Below are positions 7,829 through 55,580 of a stretch of 64,000 bases of DNA, in pieces (position 1 is the first letter of the stretch; every line of letters starts with the position of its first letter). The notes beneath the pieces were generated by a model that was given only the letters and a program-made list of their open reading frames with translations, searched no databases and had not been told where the DNA came from. This stretch comes from a virus, in the IMG/VR virus record IMGVR_UViG_3300048837_000795, positions 1 through 64,000 of that record. One strand, written 5' to 3'. A program made the translations under genes and the position numbers.

Positions 7829-8187
7829 GGCCGCTCTTCCATCTGCCGGGCCCGCAGCGCCTCGCGCTCTTCTGCCTCGCGGGCGCGCAAACCGCGCTCG
7901 TGCCAGCTATCCAGCGCGTATAGAGCGCCAACCGTCAGGCCGGCGGAAACCACAATTGCCCATAGCGCTAAGGCCGCTGTGTAGGGTGATATATAACCAA
8001 TTTCAAATTGGCACCAAATTAGTAGGGCTGTATAAGGCAGCAAAATCCCTAACAGTCCTAGAATATAGTTATAGATAGGATGGAGTCGATCACGACCAAC
8101 AAGATAACGCCACGGCCAGTAATGCTCCCCAACCATGACCACCGCGGCAAAAATCGCAGCCAACATTACGGAAAATAGAATACTCAT
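7825..8187 (-). CDS. Membrane protein, about four transmembrane segments, 120 aa
   Basis: The start at 8187 follows GGGAGGTCTTCC. Hydrophobic stretches include ILFSVMLAAIFAAVVMV, YILGLLGILLPYTALLIW and AALALWAIVVSAGLTVGALY. The C terminus is a charged helix. The start codon shares CATG with a possible integrase start on the other strand. It could be a holin-like or superinfection-exclusion protein; nothing in the sequence decides. Confidence 0.65.
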   Translation of the reverse strand: MSILFSVMLAAIFAAVVMVGEHYWPWRYLVGRDRLHPIYNYILGLLGILLPYTALLIWCQFEIGYISPYTAALALWAIVVSAGLTVGALYALDSWHERGLRAREAEEREALRARQMEERP

Positions 8188-8209
8188 GGAAGACCTCCCA
8201 GAAACGAAT

Positions 8210-9115
8210 ATGTCACGGGAGCGGATCCTCGCTATTATAAAAAGCATGCTCAACGACGTGGACCGCTTCCTGAACGAAACAGACTACAGCCCAGCCACCG
8301 CGGTATCCTACGGGTACCATCTCAAACGGTTGGCGGACTGGTTAGATGCTGTTTGCATCCCCCCTGAGCATCTCAATGCGTCCTTACTGCGCACCTATCT
8401 CGGGTCCCACGGCTGGCGCAACAACTGTCAGCGGCTGGCCGGCAATGCCGCGAAAAGTTTTTTGAAGTGGCGTTACGGCGCGACTCATGCGGCGCTGAGC
8501 CTCAAGCTGCCAAAGGACGACTCTGCCCCCGGCCGCGCATTGGACCAGGTCGAGGTCGACCGGCTGCTGGCTGTGTTCGACACGACCAAAGCCGTCGGCT
8601 GGCGCGACCTGGCCATGCTGGCGTTGATGGTTGAGTCAGGCATCCGCGAGGCAGAAGTCTGCCGTCTGGAGCTGGATTACCTCGACCTGCGCAAGATGCG
8701 CTTCGATGTGCTGGCCAAAGGACGCGACTGGCGAGAGGGCGTCTTTTCGCCCATTACCGCGCAGTACCTGGATATCTGGCTGAATGCCAGAAAGGAGTTT
8801 GCCTATCCACCAAAATGCCCTTATGTGTTTGTGAGTGTGAATGGCAAGACCAAAGGGCGTCGTATGACGCCCGGCGGTCTGCGGGCCAATTTTCGTAAAA
8901 TGGGAGTACGGGCAGAATTGGGGAAATTCTCTCCGCACGTCATGCGCCGTACAATGGCAACGCTATTGATTTTAAACGGCGCGCCTACCCGGCTGGTGCA
9001 GGAGCTCGGAGGCTGGAGTGATATCCAGATGGTCGAGCGCTACACGCGCACGATCAATCCTCAACAAATCGAGCAGTATTCCCCGCTCTGCAATCCTATA
9101 GGGTTATCAAAGTAA
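8210..9115 (+). CDS. int: Tyrosine-recombinase integrase
   Basis: The protein has an N-terminal SAM-like core-binding domain and a C-terminal catalytic domain with the full active-site set: Arg in SGIREAEVCRL (about 146), Lys in LAKGRDW (about 170), HxxR in SPHVMRRTMA (about 243-246), Trp in GGWSD, and the nucleophile Tyr in MVERYTRTI (about 278). It should catalyse site-specific integration and excision of the prophage. Start choice is uncertain: ATGs at 8135 and 8186 are also in frame, but none has a strong ribosome binding site and the earlier ones overlap the divergent gene. A terminator and a tRNA-like attachment candidate lie just downstream. Confidence 0.9.
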   Translation: MSRERILAIIKSMLNDVDRFLNETDYSPATAVSYGYHLKRLADWLDAVCIPPEHLNASLLRTYLGSHGWRNNCQRLAGNAAKSFLKWRYGATHAALSLKLPKDDSAPGRALDQVEVDRLLAVFDTTKAVGWRDLAMLALMVESGIREAEVCRLELDYLDLRKMRFDVLAKGRDWREGVFSPITAQYLDIWLNARKEFAYPPKCPYVFVSVNGKTKGRRMTPGGLRANFRKMGVRAELGKFSPHVMRRTMATLLILNGAPTRLVQELGGWSDIQMVERYTRTINPQQIEQYSPLCNPIGLSK

Positions 9116-10336: not shown

Positions 10337-10834
10337 ATGACTATTCAAATTACCGAACTTGCACCCACGCTCGAACGCGTAGCTTATAAATTCACCAGCA
10401 CCGACGAAGATGCCGCCGACTTCCTGCAGGACGCCATGCTGGGCCTGGTAGAATTTACCCAGTCAGACCCGAACGCGCTGAGTAATTCCAGAACCTACCT
10501 GGTCAACCGCGGCAAATGGGCCGGTCAGCAGGCCGCCGATAAACACCGCACAATGGAGAACACGCGGTCGACCAGCCTGGACGGCCCCGGCGTAACCTTC
10601 GCCGAGCTGCTGCCCGCCGGTACCCTCGACCCGCAGGAAGCCGCCGAGCAGGCCGAAACGATCGAGGAGCTGCTTTCGATGACCGACGATATCCCCGACG
10701 GTCCGAAAATGGTCAAGCTGATTTATCTCGGTTATTCCGAGAAAGAGATCGCCGAGACCCTGCACGTCTCCGCCGCGGCCATCAGCCAGCGCAAACATAA
10801 GTTGATCGCGCGCTGGCGCAATCTGCAAATCTAA
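10337..10834 (+). CDS. Sigma-70 family factor (ECF-like size), 165 aa
   Basis: It has a region-2-like helix set (DAADFLQDAMLGLVEF and following) and a region-4 helix-turn-helix near the C terminus (GYSEKEIAETLHVSAAAISQ). The linker is short, as in group IV sigma factors. It follows RBS AGGGGGACACG and is the main product of the rightward early promoter. It is a strong candidate to read motif B or A promoters downstream. A terminator follows. Confidence 0.8.
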   Translation: MTIQITELAPTLERVAYKFTSTDEDAADFLQDAMLGLVEFTQSDPNALSNSRTYLVNRGKWAGQQAADKHRTMENTRSTSLDGPGVTFAELLPAGTLDPQEAAEQAETIEELLSMTDDIPDGPKMVKLIYLGYSEKEIAETLHVSAAAISQRKHKLIARWRNLQI

Positions 10835-12257: not shown

Positions 12258-12455
12258 ATGCCCCCAAAAATCAAACCTCAGACAAAAGCCGTCGTGATGA
12301 TCACCCCCACCGGCACCTGCATTGTACGCACCGATGACGGCCGTCACGTCGCGCTGGCCCCTCAGCTGGCCGTAGACGTGGCGCGGACCATCCTCGATGA
12401 GGGCAAGCCCGCCATTTCACCGCCGCCGGCAAAAAGCGCCGGTTGGGTGCAGTGA
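12258..12455 (+). CDS. Small hypothetical protein, 65 aa
   Basis: ATG follows AGGAGTAGATCT. The product is a compact beta-type peptide (KAVVMITPTGTCIVRTDDGR) with a Pro-rich tail. It is the first gene behind motif B copy 3, 22 bp before the second sigma factor. Function is unknown. Confidence 0.6.
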   Translation: MPPKIKPQTKAVVMITPTGTCIVRTDDGRHVALAPQLAVDVARTILDEGKPAISPPPAKSAGWVQ

Positions 12456-12477
12456 CCCAGTTACCCAGGGGGACCGC

Positions 12478-13245
12478 ATGATACATGACCTGCTGACGGC
12501 TGAGGAAGAGATCGACCTGATCACCTGCGCGCGCGCCGGCGATACTGCCGCGCTGGAGTCGCTGGTCGAGCATAACCAGCGCCTGGTCTTCTCCATCGCC
12601 AACCGCTATTTTCATTCGGGTTTCGGCGGTGACCAGGACCTGGAAGACCTGGCGCAGTGGGGCAATATGGGCATGATCCATGCGATACGCAAATTTGACG
12701 CCCGCCGAGGCACGCGCTTCTCCACTTACGCAGTGCATTGGATCGACGCTTATATCCGGCGCTACGCCGGCGAACAAGCCAGGACCATCAGCATGACCCA
12801 GCGCGATACTGAGCGCCTGCGCAAGATCCGGCGCAGCCGTTCAGCGCTCACCATCCGGCTGCAGCGGGCGCCAACCGCCGCGGAGATCGCCGCCGACTGC
12901 GATATGGACGCCGCGTACGTCGCCGACTGGCTGCCGGCCCTGACCGCGCACGTGCGCCTCGACCGCGAGGTTGACCACGCTGCCGGCAATGATGACGCGC
13001 TGCACGAGATTATCAGCGCTGCCGACGATGACCATGACCCCGAGCGGGCCCTGGAACGCAAAGAGCTGGCCGAGCTGTTGGGCCGGCTCGACCCGCGCTG
13101 CCGGGAAGTAATCAACCGCCGCTTTTTCAACGAGCCGCCCGAGTCGCGCGCTCACATTGCCCAGCAGCTGGGCGTGTCGGTCGACTGCGTGCGCCGGCTC
13201 GAACAGCAGGCGCTGGAGATTATCCGGCCGCATTTTGGGGCTTAA
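12478..13245 (+). CDS. Sigma-70 family factor with regions 2, 3 and 4, 255 aa
   Basis: The start at 12478 follows AGGGGGACCGC; an upstream frame to 12397 lacks an RBS. Region 2 is clear (LVEHNQRLVFSIANRYFHSG, FSTYAVHWIDAYIRRYAGE). Region 3 is RAPTAAEIAADCDMDAAYVA. Region 4 is SRAHIAQQLGVSVDCVRRLE. It looks like a group-3 sigma factor lacking region 1. A second phage sigma factor implies a timed switch of promoter class. Its last codons lie inside motif B copy 4. Confidence 0.9.
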   Translation: MIHDLLTAEEEIDLITCARAGDTAALESLVEHNQRLVFSIANRYFHSGFGGDQDLEDLAQWGNMGMIHAIRKFDARRGTRFSTYAVHWIDAYIRRYAGEQARTISMTQRDTERLRKIRRSRSALTIRLQRAPTAAEIAADCDMDAAYVADWLPALTAHVRLDREVDHAAGNDDALHEIISAADDDHDPERALERKELAELLGRLDPRCREVINRRFFNEPPESRAHIAQQLGVSVDCVRRLEQQALEIIRPHFGA

Positions 13246-13276
13246 GTTTTCTGCGTGAAACCGGTTTTAAATCAGG
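13240..13276 (+). promoter_or_regulatory. Motif B copy 4
   Basis: GCTTAA (containing the sigma gene stop), GTTTTCTGCGT, GAAACCGGTTTTA, then the AGGAG of nrdG. Confidence 0.8.
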
Positions 13277-13288
13277 AGACCAAACACT

Positions 13289-13930
13289 ATGAAAATCAGA
13301 ATACACCGCATTATTCCCCAGTCCAGAGTCGACGGCCCAGGCGTGCGCACAGTTGTGTTTTTGCAGGGGTGCAGCCTGGCATGCAAGGGCTGCCAGAACC
13401 GCCATATCTGGCCGGCTGACGGCGGGCATGAGACCAACACCGCCGACCTGGCGCAGGCCCTGACCATCCTTTCCGGGCGCATCGGCAATGTCACCATCAG
13501 CGGCGGCGAGCCCTTCCAGCAGCCGGCAGCGCTGGCCGCGCTGATCACTGATCTGCGCAAGCACGGCACGGTCAAGCACCTGATCGTTTACACCGGCTAC
13601 ACCTGGGAAGAGCTGCACAGCGCCACCCACCCGGCCCGGCCATACCTGAGCGAGATTTTGCAGGGCGTGGACGTGCTGGTCGACGGGCGCTTTATCGCAA
13701 AGCTCGACGATCCGATGATCACCTACCGCGGCAGCCGCAATCAGCGGCCCATCGACGTGGCTGAGAGCCTGACCGTAGATGAGCTGGTGGTGCTGGACTG
13801 GGATCACCCCGAGGTGATCATCGGCGATGACGGCGAGCTGCTGCTGCCAATCGGACTCGCGGACGTATTTGCCAGCATGGGGGCTGTCAGGCAAAGTCGC
13901 ATGTGCGGCGAGACAGTCGATGTCAAATGA
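13289..13930 (+). CDS. nrdG: NrdG-like anaerobic ribonucleotide reductase activase (radical SAM)
   Basis: The CxxxCxxC iron-sulfur motif (GCSLACKGCQN, Cys 28, 32 and 35) and GGEP motif (ISGGEPFQQP) define a radical-SAM activase. Opening SRVDGPGVRTVVFLQGC matches NrdG. In anaerobes it makes the glycyl radical of class III ribonucleotide reductase. No nrdD is in the window, so it either serves a host or distal phage NrdD or has another glycyl-radical or peptide target. Start follows AGGAG. Confidence 0.85.
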   Translation: MKIRIHRIIPQSRVDGPGVRTVVFLQGCSLACKGCQNRHIWPADGGHETNTADLAQALTILSGRIGNVTISGGEPFQQPAALAALITDLRKHGTVKHLIVYTGYTWEELHSATHPARPYLSEILQGVDVLVDGRFIAKLDDPMITYRGSRNQRPIDVAESLTVDELVVLDWDHPEVIIGDDGELLLPIGLADVFASMGAVRQSRMCGETVDVK

Positions 13931-21394: not shown

Positions 21395-23833
21395 ATGATG
21401 ACCTACGAAGAATATCTAGCAAGCAAAGTCACCAAAACGGAAATATCAGGATTTGAAGTGTCACTAGAGGCGCTCCATCCGATCCTGAAAGGTTGGCAGA
21501 AAGTCATTGTCCAGCATGCGCTCAAGATGGGTAAATACGCGCTGTTGGAAAATACCGGACTGGGTAAGACCTTGCAATATGGCGAATGGGCTAAGCACGT
21601 GGCTGCGCACACCGGTATGAAAGTGCTGATTGTTACCCCGCTTTCCGTGGCTGATCAAACGATACGCGAGCTCGATAAGAAGCTCCAGGTGGCCGCGCGC
21701 TACTGCCGGTCACAGGAAGAGGCCGAGTCGTGCGAAGAGCAGATCATCGTTACCAATTACGACATGCTCAAGGTGTTTGACCCGGAATACTTTTCCGGCC
21801 TGGTCCTGGATGAGTCAAGCATTCTTAAAAGCTACATGGGCAAGCTCAAGCAGTACATCCTGGAAACCTTCGCCAATACGCCCTATAAGCTGGCCTGCAC
21901 CGCTACCGCCGCGCCAAACGATCACATGGAATACGGCAATCATGCCGAATTTATCGATGCGATGAGCTCGACCGATGTTTTGCAGCGCTTTTTCATCAAC
22001 GACACGATGGAGGCCGGCGGCTATCGCTTGCTGGGATGGGCCGACACGACCAAGCCAATGGGGTTTTGGACGTGGCTTTCTTCATGGGCTGCCTGCATTT
22101 CTAAGCCGTCCGATATTCCAGGCTTTACCGATGATGACTTTGTTTTGCCTAACCTGGTAATCCACGAGGAAGTCGTTTCGATCGACCATACCCGCGCCTT
22201 CGATCAAGGGCAGCTCGTGATCTCGGGCAAGCTCAGCGCCACGGGCGTATGGAAGGAAAAGGCCCTTACGCTGGAAGATCGTTGCATCCGCGCGCGTGAG
22301 GTATACGACCGCATCCAGACGCATGAGCCGGTCGTTGTCTGGTGCCAGACGAACGATGAAGCTGATCGACTGGTGCAGCTCTTCCCTGATTTTGTCGAGG
22401 TGCGCGGGGAAGAAAAGCGCGAGGTAAAGCTGGCCAAGCTGCGCGATTTTGGAGACGGCAAATATCCCGGAATTATTACCAAAGCCGAGATCGCCGGCTA
22501 CGGCATGAACTGGCAGCACGCCGGCAATCATATCTTTGTTGGGGTAACGTACTCATTCGAGGATTTTTACCAGTCGATTCGCCGCTCTTACCGCTATATG
22601 CGCGAGGGCGATGTGCATGCCTGGCTGATCTATGCGGAAACCGAGGGCAATGTGCGCAAGGCCCTGGAGATGAAACAAAAAGAGTATGACCGCATGCAAT
22701 CCCGCATGAATGAGGCCATGCGCATTTATGGACTCGACCGGGCAGTAGACCGCAAGCAGGCCAATATTGAGATCGACGAAGATGTGGCCAGCGGGGAGGG
22801 ATGGACGAATTATTTAGGTGACTGCGTTCTGACCGCCCGTAAACATATTGCCGCCGATAGTGTTGACTTCTCTATCTTCTCGCCGCCATTCGCTGAGCTT
22901 TACCGCTACACCGACAAAGTCGCCGATATGGGCAACGTAGCCAATATGGACGAATTCTTTGAGGGGTTTGATTATATGATCCACGAGCTGTACCGGGTGA
23001 TCAAACCGGGCCGGCTGGTCGCTGTGCACTGCAAAGACCTTCCCCTGTACATGAACCGTGACGCGGCCGCCGGGCTGCGCGACTTTCCCGGTGAGATCGT
23101 CAATCATTTCCAGAAATACCAGTACGATCGTGACCATATCCCCAGCGAAGACCCGCAGTACAAAAACCGGCGCTGGATCCTGCACTCAAAGGTCACGATC
23201 TGGAAAGATCCGGTCATCGAAATGCAGCGCACGAAAAACCACGGCCTGTTGTGGAAAAACTTCATGGAGCGCGGAGAGGTCGTGCGCCAGGGCATGGCAG
23301 ATTATCTGTATGTTTTCCGCAAGTGGGTGGATATGGACGAAATGCCAGACAAGCAAATTCAGCGCGTTATGAAAGCGCCTGGCTTTCACGATGGCGAAGA
23401 TGAGCATGTTTTTATCGGCGAAAACCCGCCCTTGCGTTTCGATGGTGACCGTGACTACTCGATCCAGGTATGGCAGAAATACGCTTCGCCGGTCTGGGAT
23501 GATATCCGTCAGACCAATGTGCTCAACGGCCGCATTGCCCGCGAGGACCGCGACCAGAAACATATCTGCCCGCTTCAGCTCGACGTGATCGACCGCGGGA
23601 TCGACCTGTGGACAAACCCCGGCGATCTGGTATATGACCCTTATAACGGGGTTGGGTCCACCACCAGCAGGGCTGTGCAAATGCACCGGCGCGCGGTTGG
23701 GAGTGAGCTCAAGAAAACCTATTGGAAGCTGGGCAACAAACACAATAAACAGGCCGAGCAGGAAGCGCGAAACGTGGACCTCTTTGCCTACGCCGCGTCG
23801 CTGCCCATCGAAGAACAGGCCGCCGCAGATTAG
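21395..23833 (+). CDS. Fusion of SNF2/DEAD-type helicase and DNA methyltransferase, 812 aa
   Basis: The N-terminal half is a superfamily-2 ATPase: ENTGLGKTLQYGEW (Walker A, about 52-60), LDESS (motif II, about 138-142), TATAAP (motif III) and a helicase C domain (VVVWCQTNDEADRLVQLF, FYQSIRRSYRYMREG). From about residue 470 follows a DNA methyltransferase with catalytic SPPF (about 495-498) and AdoMet loop YDPYNGVGSTTSRAV (about 746). SPPF suggests N4-cytosine methylation, or N6-adenine. The fusion resembles type III/ISP-like restriction enzymes without a nuclease. NVDLF near the C terminus is clamp-motif-like. RBS is AGAGG behind motif B. Confidence 0.85.
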   Translation: MMTYEEYLASKVTKTEISGFEVSLEALHPILKGWQKVIVQHALKMGKYALLENTGLGKTLQYGEWAKHVAAHTGMKVLIVTPLSVADQTIRELDKKLQVAARYCRSQEEAESCEEQIIVTNYDMLKVFDPEYFSGLVLDESSILKSYMGKLKQYILETFANTPYKLACTATAAPNDHMEYGNHAEFIDAMSSTDVLQRFFINDTMEAGGYRLLGWADTTKPMGFWTWLSSWAACISKPSDIPGFTDDDFVLPNLVIHEEVVSIDHTRAFDQGQLVISGKLSATGVWKEKALTLEDRCIRAREVYDRIQTHEPVVVWCQTNDEADRLVQLFPDFVEVRGEEKREVKLAKLRDFGDGKYPGIITKAEIAGYGMNWQHAGNHIFVGVTYSFEDFYQSIRRSYRYMREGDVHAWLIYAETEGNVRKALEMKQKEYDRMQSRMNEAMRIYGLDRAVDRKQANIEIDEDVASGEGWTNYLGDCVLTARKHIAADSVDFSIFSPPFAELYRYTDKVADMGNVANMDEFFEGFDYMIHELYRVIKPGRLVAVHCKDLPLYMNRDAAAGLRDFPGEIVNHFQKYQYDRDHIPSEDPQYKNRRWILHSKVTIWKDPVIEMQRTKNHGLLWKNFMERGEVVRQGMADYLYVFRKWVDMDEMPDKQIQRVMKAPGFHDGEDEHVFIGENPPLRFDGDRDYSIQVWQKYASPVWDDIRQTNVLNGRIAREDRDQKHICPLQLDVIDRGIDLWTNPGDLVYDPYNGVGSTTSRAVQMHRRAVGSELKKTYWKLGNKHNKQAEQEARNVDLFAYAASLPIEEQAAAD

Positions 23834-23887: not shown

Positions 23888-24145
23888 ATGAAGAACCCTC
23901 AGTTAAAGCCTGAAATTGCTCAATCCGTGAGTGACGCCGTTGCGGCAATTCAAAAACTTTTCTTCGAAGAGTCGCAAGAACCCCCGCGCAAAGCAAGCAT
24001 GCCCGAGCGGGTTAGAGCGCGCCTGTACTACGTCATGTATGACGTGTTTTACTGGATCACCTATTTTGTGTGGTCTTTTTTCGCCGGCATTATTGACGGT
24101 GTGAAAGATGCTGTCGGGGCGGTAAACGTAAAGAGGGACGTATGA
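23888..24145 (+). CDS. Small membrane protein, 85 aa
   Basis: A charged N-terminal helix is followed by an aromatic-rich membrane segment (LYYVMYDVFYWITYFVWSFF) and a short tail. It is first in the operon behind motif A copy 4, and its stop overlaps the DndC-like gene. Function is unknown. Confidence 0.6.
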   Translation: MKNPQLKPEIAQSVSDAVAAIQKLFFEESQEPPRKASMPERVRARLYYVMYDVFYWITYFVWSFFAGIIDGVKDAVGAVNVKRDV

Positions 24146-25290
24146 AGAGCCAGCCCTCACTGTTCGAAGGCATGAGAATGGATTTGAATTCATCCATCGA
24201 ATTAAGCATACAGAGTCTGGCGTCATACGGGAGTAGCTACCGGCATTGGGCGGTTGCTTATAGCGGCGGCAAGGACTCGACCGCTACAGCCGCATTTGTC
24301 GCCTGGGCAATCAAGGAGCGCCTTGTTCCGGCGCCGGAAACCCTGACTTTTTTGTATGCAGACACTCGTATGGAGCTCCCTCCGCTGCAACAAGGCGCGA
24401 TGCGGCTGCTTGACGCGATGCGGCGCGATGGCTTCGAGGCGCAAGTTGTTCTGCCTACTCTCAACGAGCGGTTTTTTGTCTATATGCTGGGCCGTGGCGT
24501 TCCACCGCCCAAAAACCGATTCCGGTGGTGCACGGTCCAGATAAAGGTCGAGCCTATGCAGGCGGCGCTGGCCGGCTTACGAGAGCAGGCAGGGGAGAAG
24601 TTATTGATGCTGACCGGAGTGCGCATGGGCGAAAGCGCCGCGCGCGATCAGAGAATTGCCTTAAGCTGCTCGAAGGACTCGGGCGAGTGCGGTCAGGGAT
24701 GGTTCCAAACCGCTACGGATAGCGCGATAGCTGACACTCTTGCGCCCCTGCTGCACTGGCGATTGTGCCATGTTTATGACTGGCTTTACCTAGATGACCG
24801 GCACAAATACGACGTGAGCGGGATTGCGGCTATCTATGGCGATGAGGACGTGCGCACTGGCTGCGCTGGATGCAATCTTGTCGATCGAGACACGGCATTG
24901 GAGCGGCTGGTAAAAAATCCAGCATGGGCACATATCGCACCGCTTCTTGAGCTCAAGCCGCTGTACAGGGAGCTGACAAAATCAAAATGGCGAAAGCGCA
25001 AGGCCGAGCCGGAATTGCGCAAGGACGGCAAGTATTCCAAAAACGGGCAGCGCATGGGGCCGCTGACAATGGCCGGGCGTAAGTTTGGCCTGGATAAAGT
25101 GCTAGACATACAGCGACGGGCCGGGGTTGACCTGATCAACGCAGAGGAAGAGGCCGCTATCCGTGAAATGTGGCAGACCAATACTTGGCCGAATAAGTGG
25201 TCAGATCAAGATATTGATGCAAATAAGCCCATCGATCTTGCTATCTCGGATGGCAGTCGAATTATCAGACAGGCCCTATTGGTAAGGTAG
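24142..25290 (+). CDS. PAPS-reductase/DndC-like PP-loop sulfurtransferase-type protein, 382 aa
   Basis: The PP-loop ATP-pyrophosphatase signature SGGKDST lies at residues 41-47. Downstream RFRWCTVQIKVEPM, GVRMGESAARDQR and a GCAGC cysteine pair match the PAPS reductase/DndC branch. DndC activates sulfur for DNA phosphorothioation, but no dndB, D or E is in the window, and phage orphans of this family are common and mostly uncharacterised. The N terminus QPSLFEG fits a clamp-binding pentapeptide (QxSLF). A Mom-like gene follows two genes later. RNA modification or a sulfur-metabolism role is also possible. Confidence 0.75.
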   Translation: MKSQPSLFEGMRMDLNSSIELSIQSLASYGSSYRHWAVAYSGGKDSTATAAFVAWAIKERLVPAPETLTFLYADTRMELPPLQQGAMRLLDAMRRDGFEAQVVLPTLNERFFVYMLGRGVPPPKNRFRWCTVQIKVEPMQAALAGLREQAGEKLLMLTGVRMGESAARDQRIALSCSKDSGECGQGWFQTATDSAIADTLAPLLHWRLCHVYDWLYLDDRHKYDVSGIAAIYGDEDVRTGCAGCNLVDRDTALERLVKNPAWAHIAPLLELKPLYRELTKSKWRKRKAEPELRKDGKYSKNGQRMGPLTMAGRKFGLDKVLDIQRRAGVDLINAEEEAAIREMWQTNTWPNKWSDQDIDANKPIDLAISDGSRIIRQALLVR

Positions 25291-25732: not shown

Positions 25733-26034
25733 AATATTACCTTTACTCGAATATTACCGGCTGTCACCCGTCCTGGACGGTGGCTGTGCTTGCGGTGAGT
25801 CGAAGCGATGCAAATCAGCGCATCAACGGCCCGATGTGGCGCGGTGGGAAATTCGCCGGCGAAGTAGAGTCCGGAAATGTCAAGGCCGATTGCGGGGATG
25901 TGACGGAAAAAGCAGGAGCTATTTTGCATGAACAGCTCGAAGAAGAGTATCTAAGAGCAAAGGCTGTCCAGGCGCGACTTACCAGAGCACTGGGCAGGGA
26001 GCCGACTTTGATGGAAACGGTGAATTCCTTATGA
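25729..26034 (+). CDS. Hypothetical protein, 101 aa
   Basis: It opens with beta strands (MKYYLYSNITGCHPSWTVAV) and ends in helices (LHEQLEEEYLRAKAVQARLT). It overlaps both neighbours by 4 bp, directly before the Mom-like gene. It could be a partner of that protein, by position only. Confidence 0.6.
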   Translation: MKYYLYSNITGCHPSWTVAVLAVSRSDANQRINGPMWRGGKFAGEVESGNVKADCGDVTEKAGAILHEQLEEEYLRAKAVQARLTRALGREPTLMETVNSL

Positions 26035-26750
26035 TCACGTTGATCCCCCTCGACCGCAAAGGCATTGCCTGGACGCAGCGGGTCGTCACTGAATATCACT
26101 ACCTGCATAAGCCAGTTGATGCGCGCTGCTCCGTCGAGGGGTACGAAATCCAGCTGTCAAACTATGGGTTTGCCGGCGTGCTGCTGTTTGGGCGTCCTCA
26201 AGCAACGAAGTGCCGGGACTGGTACGGCTCGGTCGAAGATGCGCAGGCCGGGCGATGCGAAGTGACTCGCTGGCAGGTGCTCAATCTGGCCCGGGTCTGG
26301 ATTTGTCCCGAATTCCAACCGGGCGGAGCGCATTGGGAATATTGGAAAGAAAACGGCGGTAATACGGCGCTGCGCTATTACCTTCCGGGCTTTGTGGATC
26401 GCAAAGACGTCTTTCGCTCTACCCTGGCCAGCGACGTGCTCAGGCTGGCAGCGGCGCAGATTGGCCTTGATTATCTTCTACGCCGGCCGCCCTGCTTTCT
26501 GGAAGAGCCTTACGAGATCCGCTGGCTGCTCTCATACTGCGATACCCGACTGCACAAAGGCACGATCTACCAGGCCGCCGGCTTCGAGCTGTATAGCACA
26601 AACGATGACGGCATTCAGACCTGGCGCATCCAGCTGCCCGCCCTGACTGACGATCAAGATAACCAGGTGCGGCAGGCCTCGCTGATCTCCCCACGCTCCA
26701 ACCGGTACCGAGCACAAAGATCCCAGCTCACGTTTGATTTTTCCGCTTAA
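26031..26750 (+). CDS. Mom-like DNA-modification acyltransferase-fold protein, 239 aa
   Basis: Features shared with the phage Mu Mom/GNAT-like group: an early YHYLHK motif (about 23-28), FAGVLLFGRP, LNLARVWICPEF, and the late KGTIYQAAGFELYS. Mu Mom converts adenine in DNA to a carbamoylmethyl form that blocks restriction. The last residues, QLTFDF, fit a sliding-clamp-binding hexapeptide, which would place modification at the replication fork. Assignment is by motif memory. It ends inside motif B copy 7 (GCTTAA supplies its stop). Confidence 0.65.
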   Translation: MITLIPLDRKGIAWTQRVVTEYHYLHKPVDARCSVEGYEIQLSNYGFAGVLLFGRPQATKCRDWYGSVEDAQAGRCEVTRWQVLNLARVWICPEFQPGGAHWEYWKENGGNTALRYYLPGFVDRKDVFRSTLASDVLRLAAAQIGLDYLLRRPPCFLEEPYEIRWLLSYCDTRLHKGTIYQAAGFELYSTNDDGIQTWRIQLPALTDDQDNQVRQASLISPRSNRYRAQRSQLTFDFSA

Positions 26751-31319: not shown

Positions 31320-31340
31320 TTATCAAAGTAACCCTATAGA
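31320..31340 (+). promoter_or_regulatory. Motif A copy 5
   Basis: TTATCAAAGTAA, CC, CTATAGA. It begins 10 bp after the terminator and 3 bp before motif B copy 8. Confidence 0.65.
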
Positions 31341-31342
31341 CT

Positions 31343-31380
31343 GCTTAATTTCTTGCGCTGAAACCGGTTTTAAGTACAGG
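31343..31380 (+). promoter_or_regulatory. Motif B copy 8
   Basis: GCTTAA, TTTCTTGCGCT, GAAACCGGTTTTA, AGTACAGG. It heads the AAA+ gene. Confidence 0.8.
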
Positions 31381-31391
31381 AGAACACGACC

Positions 31392-32936
31392 ATGAACCAG
31401 ATCCAAGCCATTGAAATTTTAGAGCGCTATATCCGCGCTCGTTATCCGATCATCGCCACACTCAGCCACGAAGAGACCCGCGTCATGGCGGCCATCCGCG
31501 CCGCCGCCAACAGCCGCAAGATGGAGCTCGTCGAATGGTCCATCACCACCGGCCTGTTGGGGGAGGGCTTTGACGCTTCCGGCACGCGCGACGTGGTCGC
31601 CGCGTTCGAGGCTATGCTGGGCGCATCCACTGACCGCTCGATCCTGTTTGTCATGCGCGACCTGCACGGCGCGCTGGGCAACGCGGACCGTGGGCATGAT
31701 CCGCTGATCACGCGCTACCTGCGCGACCTGGCTGAGAAATTCGCCGCCTGCCGCAATACTCTGGTGCTGCTGTCGCCGGCCTTCTCGATCCCCTCGGACC
31801 TCGACAAAACCATCGTACTGATCGACTGGCCGCTGCCCGACTCGGAAGAGCTGGGCGCGGTGCTCACAAAGGCCGAGATCGACCTGCCGGCGTCTATCCC
31901 CTACACCCTCAACGGCAACCGCGACCGGGTTATCCAGGCCATGCGCGGCCTGACGCTGTTCGAGGCCGAGTCGGTGCTCTCTTCCGGCATTGTCGCCACG
32001 CGGCAGTTGGGCGATAACATCATCCCCTTTATCGTCAAGGAAAAGGCGCAGATCATCCGCAAGGCCGGCGTGTTGGAATACTACGACACCGACGTGACCA
32101 TGAACCAGGTGGGCGGGCTGCAATATCTCAAGGAATATTCCGCGATCAAGCGCAAAGCCTTCTCACGCGAGGCTGCCGCCGCGGGTGTGGATGCGCCAAA
32201 GGGCTTGCTGCTGGTCGGCATCCCCGGCACCGGTAAATCCCTGGCCGCCAAAGCCATTGCCGGCGGGCAAATGCCCCTGCTGCGCATGGACGTGGGCGCG
32301 CTGATGGGTGGGCTGGTCGGGCAGAGTGAGGGCAATATGCGCGCCGCGCTCAAGGTTGCAGAGGCCGTTGCCCCGTGTGCGCTCTGGTTGGATGAAATCG
32401 AGAAAGCAATCTCGGGCGGCGGTGGGGAGCTGGACGGCGGCACGAGTGCGCGCGTCTTTGGCACGCTGCTGACCTGGATGCAGGAGACCACGGCGCCGGT
32501 TTACGTAATAGCCACCGCAAACGATATCCGCTCCCTGCGCCCCGAGCTGATCCGGCGCTTTGACGATATGATGTGGGTCGACCTGCCCAACCAGGCGGCG
32601 CGCGTCGAGATCCTGACGGTACACCTGTCCAAACGCCGGCAGGACGCTTCCCGCATCGACCTAGAGTCGGCCGCCCGGGCCACCTGGGGTTTCTCGGGCG
32701 CGGAGATCGAAAAGACGGTCAAGAGCGCGTTGGAACGGGCATTCTCACAGGGCCAGGAGCTCAGCACGGATTACCTGCTCAAGGCTGCCTCGAAAATTGT
32801 CCCCATCGCCGTGACGATGGAAAACAAGATCAAAGACCTGCGCGCCCAGGCCCAGCACGCGCTGCAGGCCGGCGATCCGCTGGAGACAAAGCCGGCAGCC
32901 GTTGCAAGCCGGGCGGTCGACCTGAGCGATTTATAA
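31392..32936 (+). CDS. Ycf46-like AAA+ ATPase, 514 aa
   Basis: An N-terminal domain with Ycf46-like features (ILERYIRARYPIIATLSHEE, WSITTGLLGEGF) is followed by one classical AAA+ module: LVGIPGTGKSLAAKAI (Walker A, about 275), CALWLDEIEKA (Walker B), VIATANDI (sensor 1) and LRPELIRRFDD (Arg finger). Ycf46 proteins are known from chloroplasts and cyanobacteria and their substrates are unsettled. It has its own A+B promoter pair, and DUF1257 and DUF2997 genes follow, so the set likely works as one system. Confidence 0.8.
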   Translation: MNQIQAIEILERYIRARYPIIATLSHEETRVMAAIRAAANSRKMELVEWSITTGLLGEGFDASGTRDVVAAFEAMLGASTDRSILFVMRDLHGALGNADRGHDPLITRYLRDLAEKFAACRNTLVLLSPAFSIPSDLDKTIVLIDWPLPDSEELGAVLTKAEIDLPASIPYTLNGNRDRVIQAMRGLTLFEAESVLSSGIVATRQLGDNIIPFIVKEKAQIIRKAGVLEYYDTDVTMNQVGGLQYLKEYSAIKRKAFSREAAAAGVDAPKGLLLVGIPGTGKSLAAKAIAGGQMPLLRMDVGALMGGLVGQSEGNMRAALKVAEAVAPCALWLDEIEKAISGGGGELDGGTSARVFGTLLTWMQETTAPVYVIATANDIRSLRPELIRRFDDMMWVDLPNQAARVEILTVHLSKRRQDASRIDLESAARATWGFSGAEIEKTVKSALERAFSQGQELSTDYLLKAASKIVPIAVTMENKIKDLRAQAQHALQAGDPLETKPAAVASRAVDLSDL

Positions 32937-32943
32937 AAATGAC

Positions 32944-32975
32944 CGGGCCGGATTGGGGTTACCTGATCCGGCCCG
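32944..32975 (+). terminator. Strong hairpin after AAA+ gene
   Basis: CGGGCCGGAT pairs with ATCCGGCCCG over 10 bp. No T-run follows, so it may be an mRNA-stabilising hairpin or weak terminator. Confidence 0.5.
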
Positions 32976-33053
32976 TAGCTTCACAGGAAGGCACTACAGC
33001 GATTTTGTGCACCAGAGTCGTATTTTCTCCCATTGGTTGATTATTCTATAACG

Positions 33054-33074
33054 TTGTTTAAGTAATTCGATAGG
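33054..33074 (+). promoter_or_regulatory. Motif A copy 6
   Basis: TTGTTTAAGTAA, TT, CGATAGG. It lies 13 bp before motif B copy 9. Confidence 0.65.
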
Positions 33075-33087
33075 ATTTAGGATTTGT

Positions 33088-33125
33088 GCTTAAGTTTTGG
33101 TGCTGAAACCGGTTTTAAGTACAGG
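33088..33125 (+). promoter_or_regulatory. Motif B copy 9
   Basis: GCTTAA, GTTTTGGTGCT, GAAACCGGTTTTA, AGTACAGG. It heads the DUF1257/DUF2997 operon. Confidence 0.8.
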
Positions 33126-33137
33126 AGGATCAAACAC

Positions 33138-33386
33138 ATGGCAGATCAAGAATTACCGACTCGTCTAAAATCGCTAACGCCCCGCAGCGCGCAGAACGCT
33201 ATCCGGCCCGAGCTGAGCGCGGCGGTTATCGATATGCTGAATGCGATTCTGTCCGGCTTCGTGGATGAAACCAGGGGCAGCAAAGTCAAGGTGCATGAAA
33301 ACATGGATAGCGTAAACATCCCCCTGCTGGTCAATGGCCAGCAGTTCACCGTCAAAGTTGAGATCTGGAACGGAGACCATCAGTAA
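33138..33386 (+). CDS. Small protein of the AAA+/DUF1257 cassette, 82 aa
   Basis: The start at 33138 follows AGGAGGATCAAACAC. The sequence is helical then beta (ELSAAVIDMLNAILSGFVDE, VNIPLLVNGQQFTVKVEIW). It ends 1 bp into the DUF1257 gene. It is not recognised, but its position makes it a likely fourth component. Confidence 0.6.
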   Translation: MADQELPTRLKSLTPRSAQNAIRPELSAAVIDMLNAILSGFVDETRGSKVKVHENMDSVNIPLLVNGQQFTVKVEIWNGDHQ

Positions 33387-33826
33387 TGTCAAAATATCGC
33401 GTTATCCAAACAGAATTCCGCAACCTGGACAGCCTGAAAAAGGCACTGGCCGATCTCGGCGTACCATACGACCTGGCAAAGAACCCGCTGCAACCCGACC
33501 TGCCGCTGTACGGGTATCTCGGCGATGAACGTCCGGAGCGCGGCTCGATCGTTATCCGCCGCAGCTGGCTGGATAACAACTGGTCAGGCAATGAGCACAT
33601 GGTTGGGCTGTCAAACGACATCGGCTTTGCCTGGGACGGGAAAGAGCTGACCGCACAGGTAAGCGAGTACGACGAAAGCAATCTCGGGGTAACCGCGGCA
33701 ATGAAGCACCTTCGCCAGCGCTACGCCTACCACGAGGTCATGCGCCTGGCGCACTCCCACGGCTACAACGTGCGCGAGTCGACCTCGCAAAACGGACAGA
33801 TGCGGGTCAAGATTGTGAGGATATGA
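33386..33826 (+). CDS. DUF1257 (Ycf35-like) protein, 146 aa
   Basis: The N terminus (RVIQTEFRNLDSLKKALADL) and C terminus (LRQRYAYHEVMRLAHSHGYN, then MRVKIVRI) match DUF1257, which includes chloroplast Ycf35. The family often neighbours DUF2997 and an AAA+ ATPase in bacteria and phages; function is unknown. It overlaps the gene before it. Confidence 0.8.
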   Translation: MSKYRVIQTEFRNLDSLKKALADLGVPYDLAKNPLQPDLPLYGYLGDERPERGSIVIRRSWLDNNWSGNEHMVGLSNDIGFAWDGKELTAQVSEYDESNLGVTAAMKHLRQRYAYHEVMRLAHSHGYNVRESTSQNGQMRVKIVRI

Positions 33827-33828
33827 TC

Positions 33829-34029
33829 ATGGCCACCAAACCACAACCGCACGAGATCACCATCATCATTGACGCCGACGGGCACATCGAGTCGACCGTC
33901 GGCGGGGTAGAGGGCCCGGCCTGTGCTGAGCTCACCAAATGGCTGGAAGAGTTGGGCACCGTCGAGATCGACTCCCAGACGGCCGACTTCCGCAAGCTGC
34001 CCAGGCAGACCACCCGGGCAGGAAAATAA
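33829..34029 (+). CDS. DUF2997-like small protein, 66 aa
   Basis: HEITIIIDADGHIESTVGGV followed by GPACAELTKWLEELG fits DUF2997, the usual partner of DUF1257. ATG at 33829 is preferred to 33823 because of GAGG spacing. Confidence 0.75.
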   Translation: MATKPQPHEITIIIDADGHIESTVGGVEGPACAELTKWLEELGTVEIDSQTADFRKLPRQTTRAGK

Positions 34030-34055
34030 TTATCAGGAACGAAAGGAAAATCACC

Positions 34056-34229
34056 ATGAGCGAAGAGAGAAAGGACGGTGCGAGCTGCGGTCAGTTATTG
34101 GCCGTGTTTGCTATACTGATCGTCGGGGCATTGATCATCAACGCGATCGGCGGAGATGCGTTCTCATTGTCACGGGCGCTCGGAATTCCCGACTGGGTAA
34201 TTCCGACGATGATCATCTTCTCGAAATAA
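34056..34229 (+). CDS. Small membrane protein, 57 aa
   Basis: Start follows GAAAGGAAAATCACC. One hydrophobic helix (LLAVFAILIVGALIINAIGG) and a second weaker one. Last gene of the DUF1257 operon. It could anchor the cassette to the membrane. Confidence 0.55.
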   Translation: MSEERKDGASCGQLLAVFAILIVGALIINAIGGDAFSLSRALGIPDWVIPTMIIFSK

Positions 34230-41958: not shown

Positions 41959-44343
41959 TTATGCCTTTACTGCCCTGGCCACGACCTGCTCGATGCGTGC
42001 CTCAAGCACGGAGAAATCGAGGGCGCTGTTGATGTTATTGCCGCCAAAGTTGAAGGCGTTGTTGATGGTGGTCGAGCGCGTCATCGCCGGGGTGGAAGGC
42101 ATGGAGCTGAATGAGCCTGCACTGCCGCGCACACCCGCGCCCTGACTGCCCGCGCCTGGGGATTTGGCATTGTGTACCACCACGCCGTCTACCAGGTAGG
42201 TATGGTCGGGATGGTCGACTTCGATGTTATAGATATCAAACTCGCCCGGGTAGGCTTCTACAAACGCGACAAAGGCCGGCGTTTTGGAAACCAGCATCTC
42301 GCCGGGCGCAAGATCGCATGCTTCGACCCAGCCGCGGGCAAATGTTTTAAATCTGTGATTGGGTGAGCAGTGATACTGCCGTCCGTCATCGATATACACG
42401 CTGACCAGGTCGCTGCGCACCGAATGGATGGTCTTTGCCACCAGCGCCGCGACTTGCTCGCCGTCATCGCGCATCAACAAAACTTTGTCGCCCACGCGCA
42501 GATCAGCAATCATGGTCATGCCGCCCGGCACATTGACCGGGGTTGACGCCACAAAGCAGGTGCCAGGCGGGTCAGATGCCGGGCCTGAGCGCGCGCCGTT
42601 GATCAGCCGCACCAAATTGTTAAACCACTTGGTCAGGTCCTGGAGTTTGCCCGACGCCCACTCGAAGGCCCGCCCTAAAACGTCGCGGATGGTTTTGGCG
42701 GCGTCCTCGATCAGCGGGCCAAATGTCTGCGAGAGCCAGTCGCCAAACCCGGTCAGCAGCGGGAACAGGGTCTCGCTGATAAACTTCCACACTTCGGTCA
42801 GCGCGGGTAACAGCGTCTCGGTCCAGACCTTACCCAATTCCTCCAGCGCCAGGCCAAACACCGCGCCGAGGAAATCGGTAAACGACTGGAAAAACGGGAA
42901 CAGCACCGTGGTCATCCATGTCCACACACGCTGGATTGCCGGCAGCAGCGTATCTTCCCAGAAGGCCCTGAGTGACTCGATAGCCAGCGGAATATTGGTC
43001 GCCAGCCAGTCCCACATGGTTTGGAAGAGCGGGAAGAGGTTGGCCTGGATCCACTCCCACACCGACATAATCGCCGGCAGTAATGTCTCTTCCCAGAAGC
43101 CTTTCAAAATCTCGATGGCCGCCGGCACGTTGACCGCCAGCCAGTTCCACAGCTGCTGTAAGGCCGGCCTTACCGTACCCTCCCAGAACTGGGTCAGGGC
43201 GTCGCGCATGCCCAAAAAGTTGTTTTCCCAGGCGTAGGCCAGCGCGGCCACGACCGCGGCGACCAGCAGCAGCACGCCGATCAGCGGCGCGGCAGCGGTG
43301 ACCATCGCTACGATCGCCGGGATGGCCGCGGCGATGGTGGTATAGGCCCATACTGCCACAGCCACGGCAATGGCCGCCAGCACCCCCACAATAATAGGCT
43401 TATTGGCCATCAGCCAGTTGAATCCGGCCTGGAGGATATTAAAGGCGATGGGCATGGCGGTAATAATCACGTTGGCAATGCGCGAGATAAGGCCGGCGAT
43501 TTGCGGCAATATCTCGCGCACCTTCGGCAGCGCTTTGCGGGCCAGCTCCATAAAACGTTTGGCCAGGTCCATCACTGCCGGCATAAGTTCTTTGCCAAGC
43601 TGCACAAACAGGCCCTGCCCGGCCATCTTCAAAAACTCAAGCTGTTTCTGCAGCTCGATCGACCCGTCAACAGTATCCCCGCTCAGCGACAGGCCCAATT
43701 CTTTGGCCATCGCGTCAGCCTCGGCAAAGCCGTCGGTGGTCAGCGCGCCTAACGTGTCGGTCAAATCTTTGCCCGACTTGCCAAACAGCTCAACCATCAG
43801 CTTGGTCTTTTCCAGCCCGTCCGGCATGAGCGCCAGTTTATCGGCCACGGCGGTGATGATATCGGTCGACGGTAGTATGTTGCCGTTCGCGTCGCGGAAA
43901 GCAATGCCCAGCTTATCCATTACCGCCCCGGTTGCGCCCAGCTCGCCCTTGCTGTCGACCAGCCCGCGGGTAAGGAAGGCCATCTGCCCGGTAATGCCCT
44001 CGACATTGCCGCCCACGCGCTGGATTGCCACGGCCAGCGCCGACGACTCTTCGGCCGACGTGCCCAGCACATCGCCAATGCTGTCGACCGTGCCGGCCCA
44101 GCCCATCATGGCCGGGATCGCCGCGAGCGCCGCGCCGGCCAGCGTGCCGACCGCCGCGGCGGCAGCGCCTAACGCCCCCATCACCACCGCCCCACCCACG
44201 CGGGACAAACCTTCGGTCATACGCGCGCCCGCGCTCTCAGTCTCATCCTTGCCGGTCTTTGTCGCGGCTAAGTATTCCCGCATACCAGCCAGGAAGTCCG
44301 CGTTTTTGAAAATAGCCTCAAGGCCGATCTGCTCTAAACCCAT
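41959..44343 (-). CDS. Tail tape measure protein with internal Hint domain, 794 aa
   Basis: The N-terminal third is Ala/Gly-rich helical (LSRVGGAVVMGALGAAAAAV). Central hydrophobic helices (IIVGVLAAIAVAVAVWAYTT, LIGVLLLVAAVVAALAYAW) are typical of tape measures. Trp-rich repeats (TLLPAIQRVWTWMTTVLFPF and relatives) follow. From Cys596 to Asn725 lies a Hint/intein-like domain. A short Ser/Asn-rich tail ends the protein. It sets tail length and aids DNA ejection. Start follows AAAGGACGGTAATC. Confidence 0.85.
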   Translation of the reverse strand: MGLEQIGLEAIFKNADFLAGMREYLAATKTGKDETESAGARMTEGLSRVGGAVVMGALGAAAAAVGTLAGAALAAIPAMMGWAGTVDSIGDVLGTSAEESSALAVAIQRVGGNVEGITGQMAFLTRGLVDSKGELGATGAVMDKLGIAFRDANGNILPSTDIITAVADKLALMPDGLEKTKLMVELFGKSGKDLTDTLGALTTDGFAEADAMAKELGLSLSGDTVDGSIELQKQLEFLKMAGQGLFVQLGKELMPAVMDLAKRFMELARKALPKVREILPQIAGLISRIANVIITAMPIAFNILQAGFNWLMANKPIIVGVLAAIAVAVAVWAYTTIAAAIPAIVAMVTAAAPLIGVLLLVAAVVAALAYAWENNFLGMRDALTQFWEGTVRPALQQLWNWLAVNVPAAIEILKGFWEETLLPAIMSVWEWIQANLFPLFQTMWDWLATNIPLAIESLRAFWEDTLLPAIQRVWTWMTTVLFPFFQSFTDFLGAVFGLALEELGKVWTETLLPALTEVWKFISETLFPLLTGFGDWLSQTFGPLIEDAAKTIRDVLGRAFEWASGKLQDLTKWFNNLVRLINGARSGPASDPPGTCFVASTPVNVPGGMTMIADLRVGDKVLLMRDDGEQVAALVAKTIHSVRSDLVSVYIDDGRQYHCSPNHRFKTFARGWVEACDLAPGEMLVSKTPAFVAFVEAYPGEFDIYNIEVDHPDHTYLVDGVVVHNAKSPGAGSQGAGVRGSAGSFSSMPSTPAMTRSTTINNAFNFGGNNINSALDFSVLEARIEQVVARAVKA
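42169..42558 (-). other. Hint (intein-like / BIL) domain inside the tape measure protein
   Basis: 130 residues. They begin with CFVASTPVNVPGGM (N1 Cys), carry HCSPNHRF (TxxH-like block B), and end YLVDGVVVHN (His-Asn terminus). The residue after Asn is Ala, not Ser, Thr or Cys, so normal splicing is unlikely. Bacterial intein-like domains of this type cleave or splice weakly. No homing endonuclease is inserted. Confidence 0.75.
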
Positions 44344-55178: not shown

Positions 55179-55580
55179 TTACGCGTTTGGCCCGGTGAGG
55201 GTAAAGCTGGTGATGGTGATCTGCTGGGTAGCCACAACTACGTTGTTATCCAGGGTAATATCCCCGCCCCCACCTGTGATGGTGACCGAGCCTTGATCGT
55301 GACAGGTCGCGCCCTGCTTGATGCGGAAGTGCGCGACGGTGCCGGGATTGTCAGCGCTCAAATCCTGCCACGTACCCAACAACGCCTTGCTGCCGGCATT
55401 GGCTGCCGCCATCCAGTCAGCCGGTAATGCCAACGACGCGACTAACGTGCCGCTGTCTGCCGCGGCGCAGTTGGCCGGCTGCGCGCCGGTGCGCAGCTCA
55501 AGCGTCGGGGAAGCGCCGATAGTCGACTCGTACACGTCCAGGATCGCATTGCGGACCGCCACGGAAAATTGATGTGCCAT
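55179..55580 (-). CDS. Small virion protein, 133 aa
   Basis: FSVAVRNAILDVYESTIGAS, LELRTGAQPANCAAADSGTL and VAHFRIKQGATCHDQGSVTI match a family of phage appendage proteins seen near tail fibres. It has an RBS (AAGGAGC) right after a terminator. Confidence 0.65.
   Translation of the reverse strand: MAHQFSVAVRNAILDVYESTIGASPTLELRTGAQPANCAAADSGTLVASLALPADWMAAANAGSKALLGTWQDLSADNPGTVAHFRIKQGATCHDQGSVTITGGGGDITLDNNVVVATQQITITSFTLTGPNA

What the first reader, a model, noticed from the sequence alone, without database searches (positions are those of the whole stretch)
31320..34229. Phage-borne Ycf46-like AAA+ / small protein / DUF1257 (Ycf35-like) / DUF2997 / membrane peptide cassette
Families best known from chloroplasts and cyanobacteria, with no settled function, lie together under two dual promoters. 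The set looks like a self-contained machine: ATPase, two small conserved partners, an unassigned 82-aa protein and a membrane anchor. It could remodel host complexes, guard the prophage or act against other phages.
Basis: partly seen in the sequence, partly recalled or inferred. Interest (0 to 1): 0.85.

Follow-up and report, generated by a model that had tools for sequence, protein, structure and literature searches.

The report
Phage copy of plastid-type protein remodeller
A virus of bacteria carries a widespread but unexplained three-gene set, a ring-type protein-remodelling motor of a kind named from algal chloroplasts plus two small partner proteins, and comparison with other viruses and microbes gives first clues to how its parts may dock.

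Summary
A Ycf46-like AAA+ ATPase, DUF1257 and DUF2997 lie in order, with an 82-aa and a 57-aa ORF that match no family and for which no relative was found. The core trio is co-conserved: 43 of 110 usable viral loci with a related ATPase carry DUF1257 and/or DUF2997 nearby (30 both), as do bacteria and archaea. Another 57 carry a different pair, F1 and F3.

The ATPase has a p97-like tandem-AAA fold: first domain without Walker A, second intact. I read the trio as an ATP-driven protein remodeller with two small adaptors.

New here: (i) many of these ATPases end in a short tail (R-x-[ILVM]-[DE]-hydrophobic) that tracks partner genes and recurs in F1 and other neighbours; (ii) an NrdG-like radical-SAM gene, mostly without NrdD, matches strongly in 11 of 43 DUF-type viral records and 0 of 35 F1/F3-type ones, the window included (13289-13930). 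Tree-aware tests of both point the right way but are underpowered.

The 'dual promoter' is a nine-copy phage-wide element. Defence is not supported. The client is unknown.

The parts
31392..32936 (+). Ycf46-like tandem-AAA ATPase, 514 aa: N-terminal AAA domain (about 1-225) without a Walker A; active AAA domain (about 226-490: GIPGTGKS 276-283, DE 334-335, R389); low-confidence linker; C-terminal RAVDLSDL
   Evidence: Pfam AAA 1e-25, phrog_8638 1.1e-122, model mean pLDDT 93.2, p97 Z 27.1 over 468 residues, column counts
33386..33826 (+). DUF1257 protein, 146 aa
   Evidence: PF06868 7.4e-11; alignment of 51; model mean pLDDT 88.5
33823..34029 (+). DUF2997 protein, 68 aa, with conserved G20, G31 and C34
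   Evidence: PF11211 1.2e-9; these three columns invariant in all 34 aligned rows
33138..33386 (+). 82-aa ORF, no family, probably lineage-specific; not shown to belong to the machine
34056..34229 (+). 57-aa hydrophobic ORF, no family; not shown to belong to the machine
13289..13930 (+). NrdG-like radical-SAM protein, 213 aa, away from the cassette but behind the same upstream element; possible partner
   Evidence: Fer4_12 7.6e-36, NrdG equivalog 123.4 bits, cut-off 126.1, no NrdD in the record
31343..31382 (+). copy of the phage-wide upstream element (GCTTAA...GAAACCGGTTTTA...AGGAG) before the ATPase
33088..33127 (+). copy of the same element before the 82-aa ORF, DUF1257 and DUF2997
13240..13269 (+). 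copy of the same element before the radical-SAM gene

Best explanation
The core (ATPase, DUF1257, DUF2997) is a phage-borne copy of a widespread protein-remodelling module. The ATPase folds like the D1-D2 body of p97/Cdc48, with a conserved D1 that has no P-loop and a D2 that keeps every ATPase motif checked (shown from sequence and model). It probably works as a ring that pulls on or takes apart a client complex (inferred from family). DUF1257 and DUF2997 are its two small adaptors or regulators (inferred from co-conservation). In many related systems the ATPase ends in a flexible linker and a short tail which also occurs in other proteins of the same locus; I infer that this tail is a docking peptide that brings ATPase and clients to one receptor, probably DUF1257/DUF2997 in one class of system and F3 in the other. 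The window's ATPase keeps such a sequence (RAVDL) three residues from its end. In the window and some relatives an NrdG-like radical-SAM protein without an NrdD partner is a likely further component (association shown, role inferred). The phage probably makes all this under its own promoters to remodel a host or phage assembly; the client is unknown.
For: Co-conservation: of 121 viral rows (the window's own locus included) 110 have a complete ATPase and over 1.5 kb downstream: 43 with DUF1257 and/or DUF2997 nearby (30 with both, 20 of these with both within 1.5 kb downstream of the ATPase), 57 with F1/F3, 10 with neither detected. Cultured examples: Rhizobium phage RHph_I4 (annotated so by depositors), Aeromonas HJ05, Agrobacterium JP1, Rhodobacter RcKickapoo. 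Cells: 17 of 66 usable loci (80 fetched). Fold: p97 Z 27.1, rmsd 8.2, 468 aligned; Rix7 Z 24.9, rmsd 4.3, 458 aligned. D2 motifs G276, G279, G281, K282, D334, E335, R389 in 46 of 46 rows; D1 P-loop place holds [TS]-x-E-E-x-x-R (E27 44 of 46, R30 43 of 46). Tails: cells 13 of 17 with DUF neighbours against 2 of 49 without, Fisher 1e-8; F1/F3-type viral 49 of 57; F1 motif in the last 75 residues in 37 of 56 distinct sequences, mean 1.5 and maximum 5 in 300 shuffles; of 1396 other ORFs of 80+ aa in the first 135 loci 16 have the tail, 15 of them HhH proteins or F1 in the ATPase locus. Radical SAM: 11 of 43 DUF-type records against 0 of 35 F1/F3-type, p 8e-4; 10 of these 11 have no NrdD.
Against: No client, no interaction and no activity was tested. 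Tree-aware pairs do not establish the tail association (cells: 5 well-supported pairs, same way 1.6, other way 0.0 on average, not significant) nor that of the radical SAM with DUF genes (8 pairs, 1.3 against 0.1, not significant). In DUF-type phages the strict tail is rare (2 of 41, and 0 of 2 that also carry F1/F3); their ends look basic and hydrophobic instead, which I did not test. The window's own tail misses the strict pattern by one extra residue. The radical SAM is absent from most DUF-type records, including those of L008 and L139 from the window's own clade (L139's record is a 28-kb piece). DUF1257 has no convincing fold relative.
Confidence: 0.5

Rival explanations
1. The cassette helps phage replication or virion assembly directly: the ATPase remodels a phage nucleoprotein or capsid intermediate, and the cell-borne copies do something else.
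For: Present in many different tailed phages; p97/Rix7/Drg1-like remodellers act on large assemblies (family knowledge). The F1/F3 trait needs one change on the ATPase tree, as expected of a phage-adapted form.
Against: The same trio occurs in bacteria and archaea. No fixed place next to replication or head genes was seen in the loci read.
Confidence: 0.2
2. Anti-phage or anti-plasmid defence carried by the prophage.
For: An integrase (8135-9115, PF00589 4.7e-29) suggests a temperate phage; PADLOC's IetA models match (2.7e-26); some cellular neighbours look like conflict-system parts (a weak PLD-like and an AAA_16 match in L064).
Against: PADLOC hits cover only the shared AAA module; DUF1257 and DUF2997 have no meaningful match in PADLOC; no protease gene lies among the five ORFs. 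The ATPase and the 82-aa/DUF1257/DUF2997 group share the upstream element with other phage genes, unlike a typical cargo gene.
Confidence: 0.12
3. An auxiliary stress or metabolism set: the phage keeps an Fe-S or radical enzyme of the host active during infection, with the ATPase as a reactivase.
For: Cyanobacterial DUF2997-ycf35-fed7 cluster with a ferredoxin (PMC4284462, passages); the Ycf46 operon responds to iron deficiency and oxidative stress, and inactivation of Ycf46 reduces activity of carbonic anhydrase EcaB (PMC7496141, passages); orphan NrdG-like activases with the module.
Against: No glycyl-radical enzyme was identified as the client; most module-bearing phage records lack the activase.
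Confidence: 0.13
4. Independent small genes that happen to sit together, of no joint function.
For: The ATPase and the DUF1257/DUF2997 pair lie behind separate copies of the element and order varies elsewhere.
Against: Repeated adjacency in cells and phages of different kinds.
Confidence: 0.05

Closest known systems
Ycf46 family (cyanobacteria, algal plastids; Synechocystis slr0374)
   Different: Phage copy, next to DUF1257/DUF2997, with a C-terminal tail that cellular copies without DUF neighbours mostly lack (2 of 49 have it).
p97/Cdc48, Rix7, NVL, Drg1 (tandem AAA remodellers)
   Same: Same two-domain body in the model.
   Different: No N-domain; N-terminal AAA domain without Walker A; about 20% identity in the structural alignments.
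DUF2997-Ycf35-Fed7 gene cluster of Synechocystis
   Same: DUF1257 and DUF2997 side by side (PMC4284462, passages).
   Different: A ferredoxin instead of the ATPase in that cluster; nothing about phages in the passages read.
PHROG families 8638, 11021, 11784 (for example mycobacteriophage Catdawg)
   Same: The window's ATPase falls in phrog_8638.
   Different: In Catdawg the ATPase is followed by F1 and F3, not DUF1257/DUF2997.
IetAS / IteA anti-phage ATPase
   Same: Shared AAA module.
   Different: Far below the NCBIfam cut-off, other partners.

Membership tests
Ycf46-like AAA | whole-length similarity including the N-terminal domain | tested here: met
phrog_8638 1.1e-122 over residues 6-502; cyanobacterial L066, L073, L078 38-41% over nearly all of the query.
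AAA ATPase, active | Walker A, Walker B, arginine in D2 | tested here: met
   46 of 46 rows
p97/Cdc48 family | two ATP-binding AAA domains plus N-domain | tested here: not met
   D1 has no Walker A and the protein starts at D1; CDC48 model 95 bits, cut-off 802.65. It works like one at most.
DUF1257 (PF06868) | score over the gathering cut-off | tested here: met
   42.6 bits, cut-off 22.2
DUF2997 (PF11211) | score over the gathering cut-off | tested here: met
   38.3 bits, cut-off 24.1
NrdG (anaerobic RNR activase), window 13289-13930 | NCBIfam equivalog cut-off and an NrdD partner | tested here: not met
   123.4 bits, cut-off 126.1; no NrdD in the 65-kb record
IetAS / IteA | equivalog score | tested here: not met
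   87.9 bits, cut-off 510
IetAS / IteA | serine-protease partner gene | not tested
   the partner was not searched as a profile over the record
Hexameric unfoldase | ring formation and ATP-driven unfolding | not testable with these tools
   no complex prediction or assay available

The most novel reading that the evidence does not exclude
Ycf46-type ATPases are the motors of a family of modular remodelling systems shared by phages, bacteria and archaea, in which ATPase, clients and helpers recognise one another by short C-terminal peptides specific to each cassette type (GRALDL-like; QRMEF-like; LRQExxNPFI-like), and in which an orphan NrdG-like radical-SAM enzyme modifies or reactivates the client held open by the motor.
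Probability: 0.22. Interest if true: 0.85.

Novelty: new variant of a known kind. Interest (0 to 1): 0.6.

Why it matters
Ycf46 and Ycf35 (DUF1257) are plastid and cyanobacterial genes without a settled mechanism. Finding them with DUF2997 as a compact module in phages, including cultured ones, gives small testable systems outside photosynthesis. The tails make concrete predictions: cut the last residues and docking should fail; the proteins carrying the tail are candidate clients.

Tried and rejected
DUF1257 by sequence alone reaches little: tblastn in cultured phages no match, IMG/VR patterns none, single-sequence HMM iteration nothing new; a seed of several proteins was needed.

Fold of DUF1257: no Foldseek match under 0.001 in PDB or BFVD; best VIA Z 6.8, rmsd 2.9, 78 aligned (AMPK alpha-subunit C-terminal region, KA1-like), below the level the tool calls meaningful. 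Sequence profiles of DUF1257 and DUF2997 against PDB: nothing credible.

F3 as a relative of DUF2997: hairpin only, probability 45% over 18 columns; radical-SAM C-terminus against DUF2997 14%, against F3 7%: not claimed. F1 reminded me of DUF3150 (recalled); Pfam gave no such family.

Radical SAM as a core part: rejected as core, since most DUF-type records lack it. Shared promoter element in relatives: one match with a mismatch in 6 records, so it is this phage's own.

A first, narrower tail pattern gave 6 of 21 DUF-type cellular loci and 3 of 58 others, Fisher 0.009; it missed the cyanobacterial form, so I widened it after seeing the data. The tail pattern is therefore post hoc, as is the definition of the two cassette types. 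Near-identical loci (for example L019/L021, L032/L035, L154/L183, L178/L179, L186/L187) were not merged before the counts. L139 was counted as 'neither', although its next two ORFs look like the DUF1257/DUF2997 forms of L008 by eye; in the whole-record count I counted it as DUF-type. The 43 loci and the 43 records are overlapping but different sets.

Literature: DUF1257/DUF2997 gave 3 papers, ycf46/ycf35 48 papers with 30 listed, ycf46 with AAA and phage 2 papers, the slr0374 operon 4. I read passages of PMC4284462, PMC13131479, PMC8875361 and PMC7496141, the rest only in listings. In these searches I saw no report of the module in phages, beyond a remark in PMC13131479 that DUF2997 is also found in some viruses.
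Full report
What is there. The window is 64000 of 65423 bases of an IMG/VR virus record. Profiles confirm a Ycf46-like AAA ATPase, DUF1257 and DUF2997; the 82-aa and 57-aa ORFs match nothing.

Other phages. tblastn of the ATPase finds 130 of 50,697 phage records, but only 5 cover 80% of it, and many of the weaker ones look like general AAA matches. Rhizobium phage RHph_I4 is annotated ATPase - 212 aa - DUF1257 - DUF2997. Aeromonas HJ05 has the same order by Pfam; Agrobacterium JP1 and Rhodobacter RcKickapoo have DUF2997 by Pfam and DUF1257 only by my profile. IMG/VR gave 48 loci from the window's ATPase and 80 from an alignment, part of them shared. In one search I examined 121 viral rows (the window's own locus, 6 cultured phages, 114 IMG/VR loci). 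110 have a complete ATPase and over 1.5 kb downstream. Of these 43 have DUF1257 and/or DUF2997 in the flanks on the same strand (2 of them also F1/F3), 57 have F1/F3 (phrog_11021 and phrog_11784) and 10 neither. 30 have both DUFs, 20 of them both within 1.5 kb downstream. L038 carries ATPase - F1 - DUF1257 - DUF2997, so F1 is not DUF1257.

The window's clade. On a FastTree of 195 ATPases the window falls in a fully supported set of five; its nearest rows by path are L138, L139, L140 and L008. L138 has a 147-aa and L140 a 97-aa ORF where the window has 82 aa; L008 has neither. The 82-aa and 57-aa ORFs found no relative in IMG/VR, but at this sensitivity neither did DUF1257 itself, so absence is weak evidence.

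Cells. A scan of GTDB genomes kept 80 of 144 relatives. In the same locus as the ATPase, DUF1257 and/or DUF2997 occur in deltaproteobacterial MAGs, a Thermoguttaceae MAG, a rumen bacterium, an archaeal MAG, Microbacterium, Neobacillus and cyanobacteria: 17 of 66 usable loci. The other cellular copies stand without them in the stretch held; their DUF genes may lie elsewhere.

The motor. The model (mean pLDDT 93.2) aligns over residues 2-491 with p97 D1-D2, Z 27.1, rmsd 8.2, 468 residues, and with Rix7, Z 24.9, rmsd 4.3, 458 residues. In 46 aligned relatives the second domain keeps GxxGxGK[ST], DE and R389 throughout; the first has [TS]xEExxR where a P-loop would be and an aspartate-x-histidine pair (D90 39 of 46, H92 38 of 46) at the Walker B place. 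So D1 is conserved but not a normal ATPase; it may be a structural or sensing ring (inference).

The small partners. DUF2997 has G20, G31 and C34 invariant in all 34 aligned rows: the window plus 33 of 39 extracted members; I left out six (L064, L091, L144, L156, L170, L192: near copies, no clear start, cut or odd). The DUF2997-like ORFs of L008 and L139 lack this cysteine and are histidine-rich. DUF1257 was aligned with 50 of 56 extracted members; left out were L077, L086, L099, L102, L150 and L192. Its model is good (mean pLDDT 88.5) but no solved structure or viral model is a convincing relative.

The tail. Printing the last 22 residues of the ATPases showed endings such as GRALDL in F1/F3 phages, QRMEF in cyanobacteria with DUF1257 next door and GGRTLDF or GGRAVDF in the rumen bacterium and Neobacillus, whereas most stand-alone copies stop soon after the last helix. 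With the pattern R-x(0,1)-[ILVM]-[DE]-[ILVFMYW]-x(0,2)-end, cells with DUF neighbours have it in 13 of 17 and the others in 2 of 49 (Fisher 1e-8; with a 1.2-kb limit 13 of 19 and 2 of 49, 7e-8). F1/F3 phages have it in 49 of 57, DUF-type phages in 2 of 41, DUF plus F1/F3 in 0 of 2, neither in 2 of 10. Of 1396 other ORFs of 80 or more residues, 16 have the narrower pattern: eleven HhH-like ones (seven in L061, two in L072, one each in L089 and L098), four F1-like, one other. F1 carries the motif in its last 75 residues in 37 of 56 distinct sequences, against 1.5 on average in shuffles. Against this: the pattern was chosen after seeing the data; related sequences inflate the Fisher test; the tree-aware test has too few pairs; and the window's ATPase, ending RAVDLSDL, is one residue too long for the pattern. 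In the window no other ORF of 40 or more residues has even a looser form, except a 43-aa one at 55574.

Radical SAM. NrdG-like genes lie in the ATPase locus in 11 cellular loci and in the flanks of 8 of 43 DUF-type viral loci, 0 of 57 F1/F3-type (p 8e-4). Over whole records, strong PF13353 matches (E under 1e-15) occur in 11 of 43 DUF-type records (the window; L138 and L140, its close relatives; eight more) and in 0 of 35 F1/F3-type ones; two records of neither type (L007, L045) had none. Of the 80 records searched so, the five F1/F3 ones were added as controls; DUF-type records there tend to be larger, which favours finding any gene. Ten of the eleven records have no NrdD; in the eleventh (G039) the best match lies near an NrdD and a second, weaker one in the stretch of the ATPase locus. 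Seven of eight tested radical-SAM proteins fall below the NrdG equivalog cut-off. The window's is 50% and 49% identical to those of L138 and L140 and 30-45% to the others, a presumed true NrdG among them at 36%, so it is not shown to be a cassette-specific lineage beyond its own clade.

Expression. An element with GCTTAA, a T-run and GAAACCGGTTTTA occurs nine times (eight exact in the 13-mer, one with two mismatches), before genes for a 119-aa, 135-aa, 65-aa and 412-aa protein, the radical SAM, a helicase-methyltransferase, a 75-aa protein, the ATPase and the 82-aa ORF. The phage also encodes two sigma-70-like proteins; that one of them reads this element is a guess. It was not found in relatives, apart from one inexact match.

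Mechanism. I commit to a p97-like remodeller with DUF1257 and DUF2997 as adaptors (0.5). Shown: families, modelled fold, co-conservation, intact D2. Inferred: ring, client pulling, adaptor role, docking by the tail, partnership with the radical SAM. p97's own C-terminus and the proteasomal HbYX tail are docking peptides (recalled), which is why I read the tail so; that is likeness of working, not membership.

Verdict. Real and co-conserved; two of the five parts are probably bystanders. A new setting and perhaps a new variant of a known kind of motor, with testable docking peptides. Interest 0.6.

Noticed in passing
window 7553 (-), 10910, 12217, 13257, 19035, 21362, 26762, 31360, 33105 (+): Nine copies of a phage-wide upstream element with palindromic AAACCGGTTT in eight, each with a start codon 32-50 nt after its first base; two sigma-like genes at 10337-10834 and 12397-13245.
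   Followed up: partly
window 41959-44343 (-): Tape-measure-like protein with a weak Hint/intein-like domain near its C-terminus (PT-HINT 9.5e-5, below cut-off).
   Followed up: no
window 21395-23833, 24142-25290, 26031-26750 (+): Helicase-methyltransferase, PAPS-reductase-like protein and Mom-like protein: a possible DNA-modification group; PAPS-like ORFs also follow the cassette in L141 and L142 by eye.
   Followed up: no
L003 (mycobacteriophage Catdawg) and 57 of 110 viral loci: A second cassette: ATPase, F1 (about 265 aa, phrog_11021), F3 (about 113 aa, phrog_11784, Cys- and His-containing ends), no Pfam family; one change on the ATPase tree.
   Followed up: partly
L064, L081, L082, L091: A third ATPase ending, LRQExxNPFI-like, seen by eye in archaeal, Tenericutes and Bacteroidales loci; PLD-like or prefoldin-like neighbours gave weak matches in L064 and L091.
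   Followed up: no
L066, L073, L076, L077, L079, L085, L090, L099, L102: Cyanobacterial loci: a 116-135-aa protein with CPxC-like motif, mostly ending LVPC, precedes the tailed ATPase and DUF1257.
   Followed up: no
L061, L072, L089, L098: HhH-like proteins (HHH_3 in the two tested), several per locus in L061 and L072, end in the same kind of tail as the ATPase.
   Followed up: partly
window 13289-13930, L204, L205: The radical-SAM proteins of the window, L138 and L140 share a C-terminal SRMCG[EQ]T.
   Followed up: no
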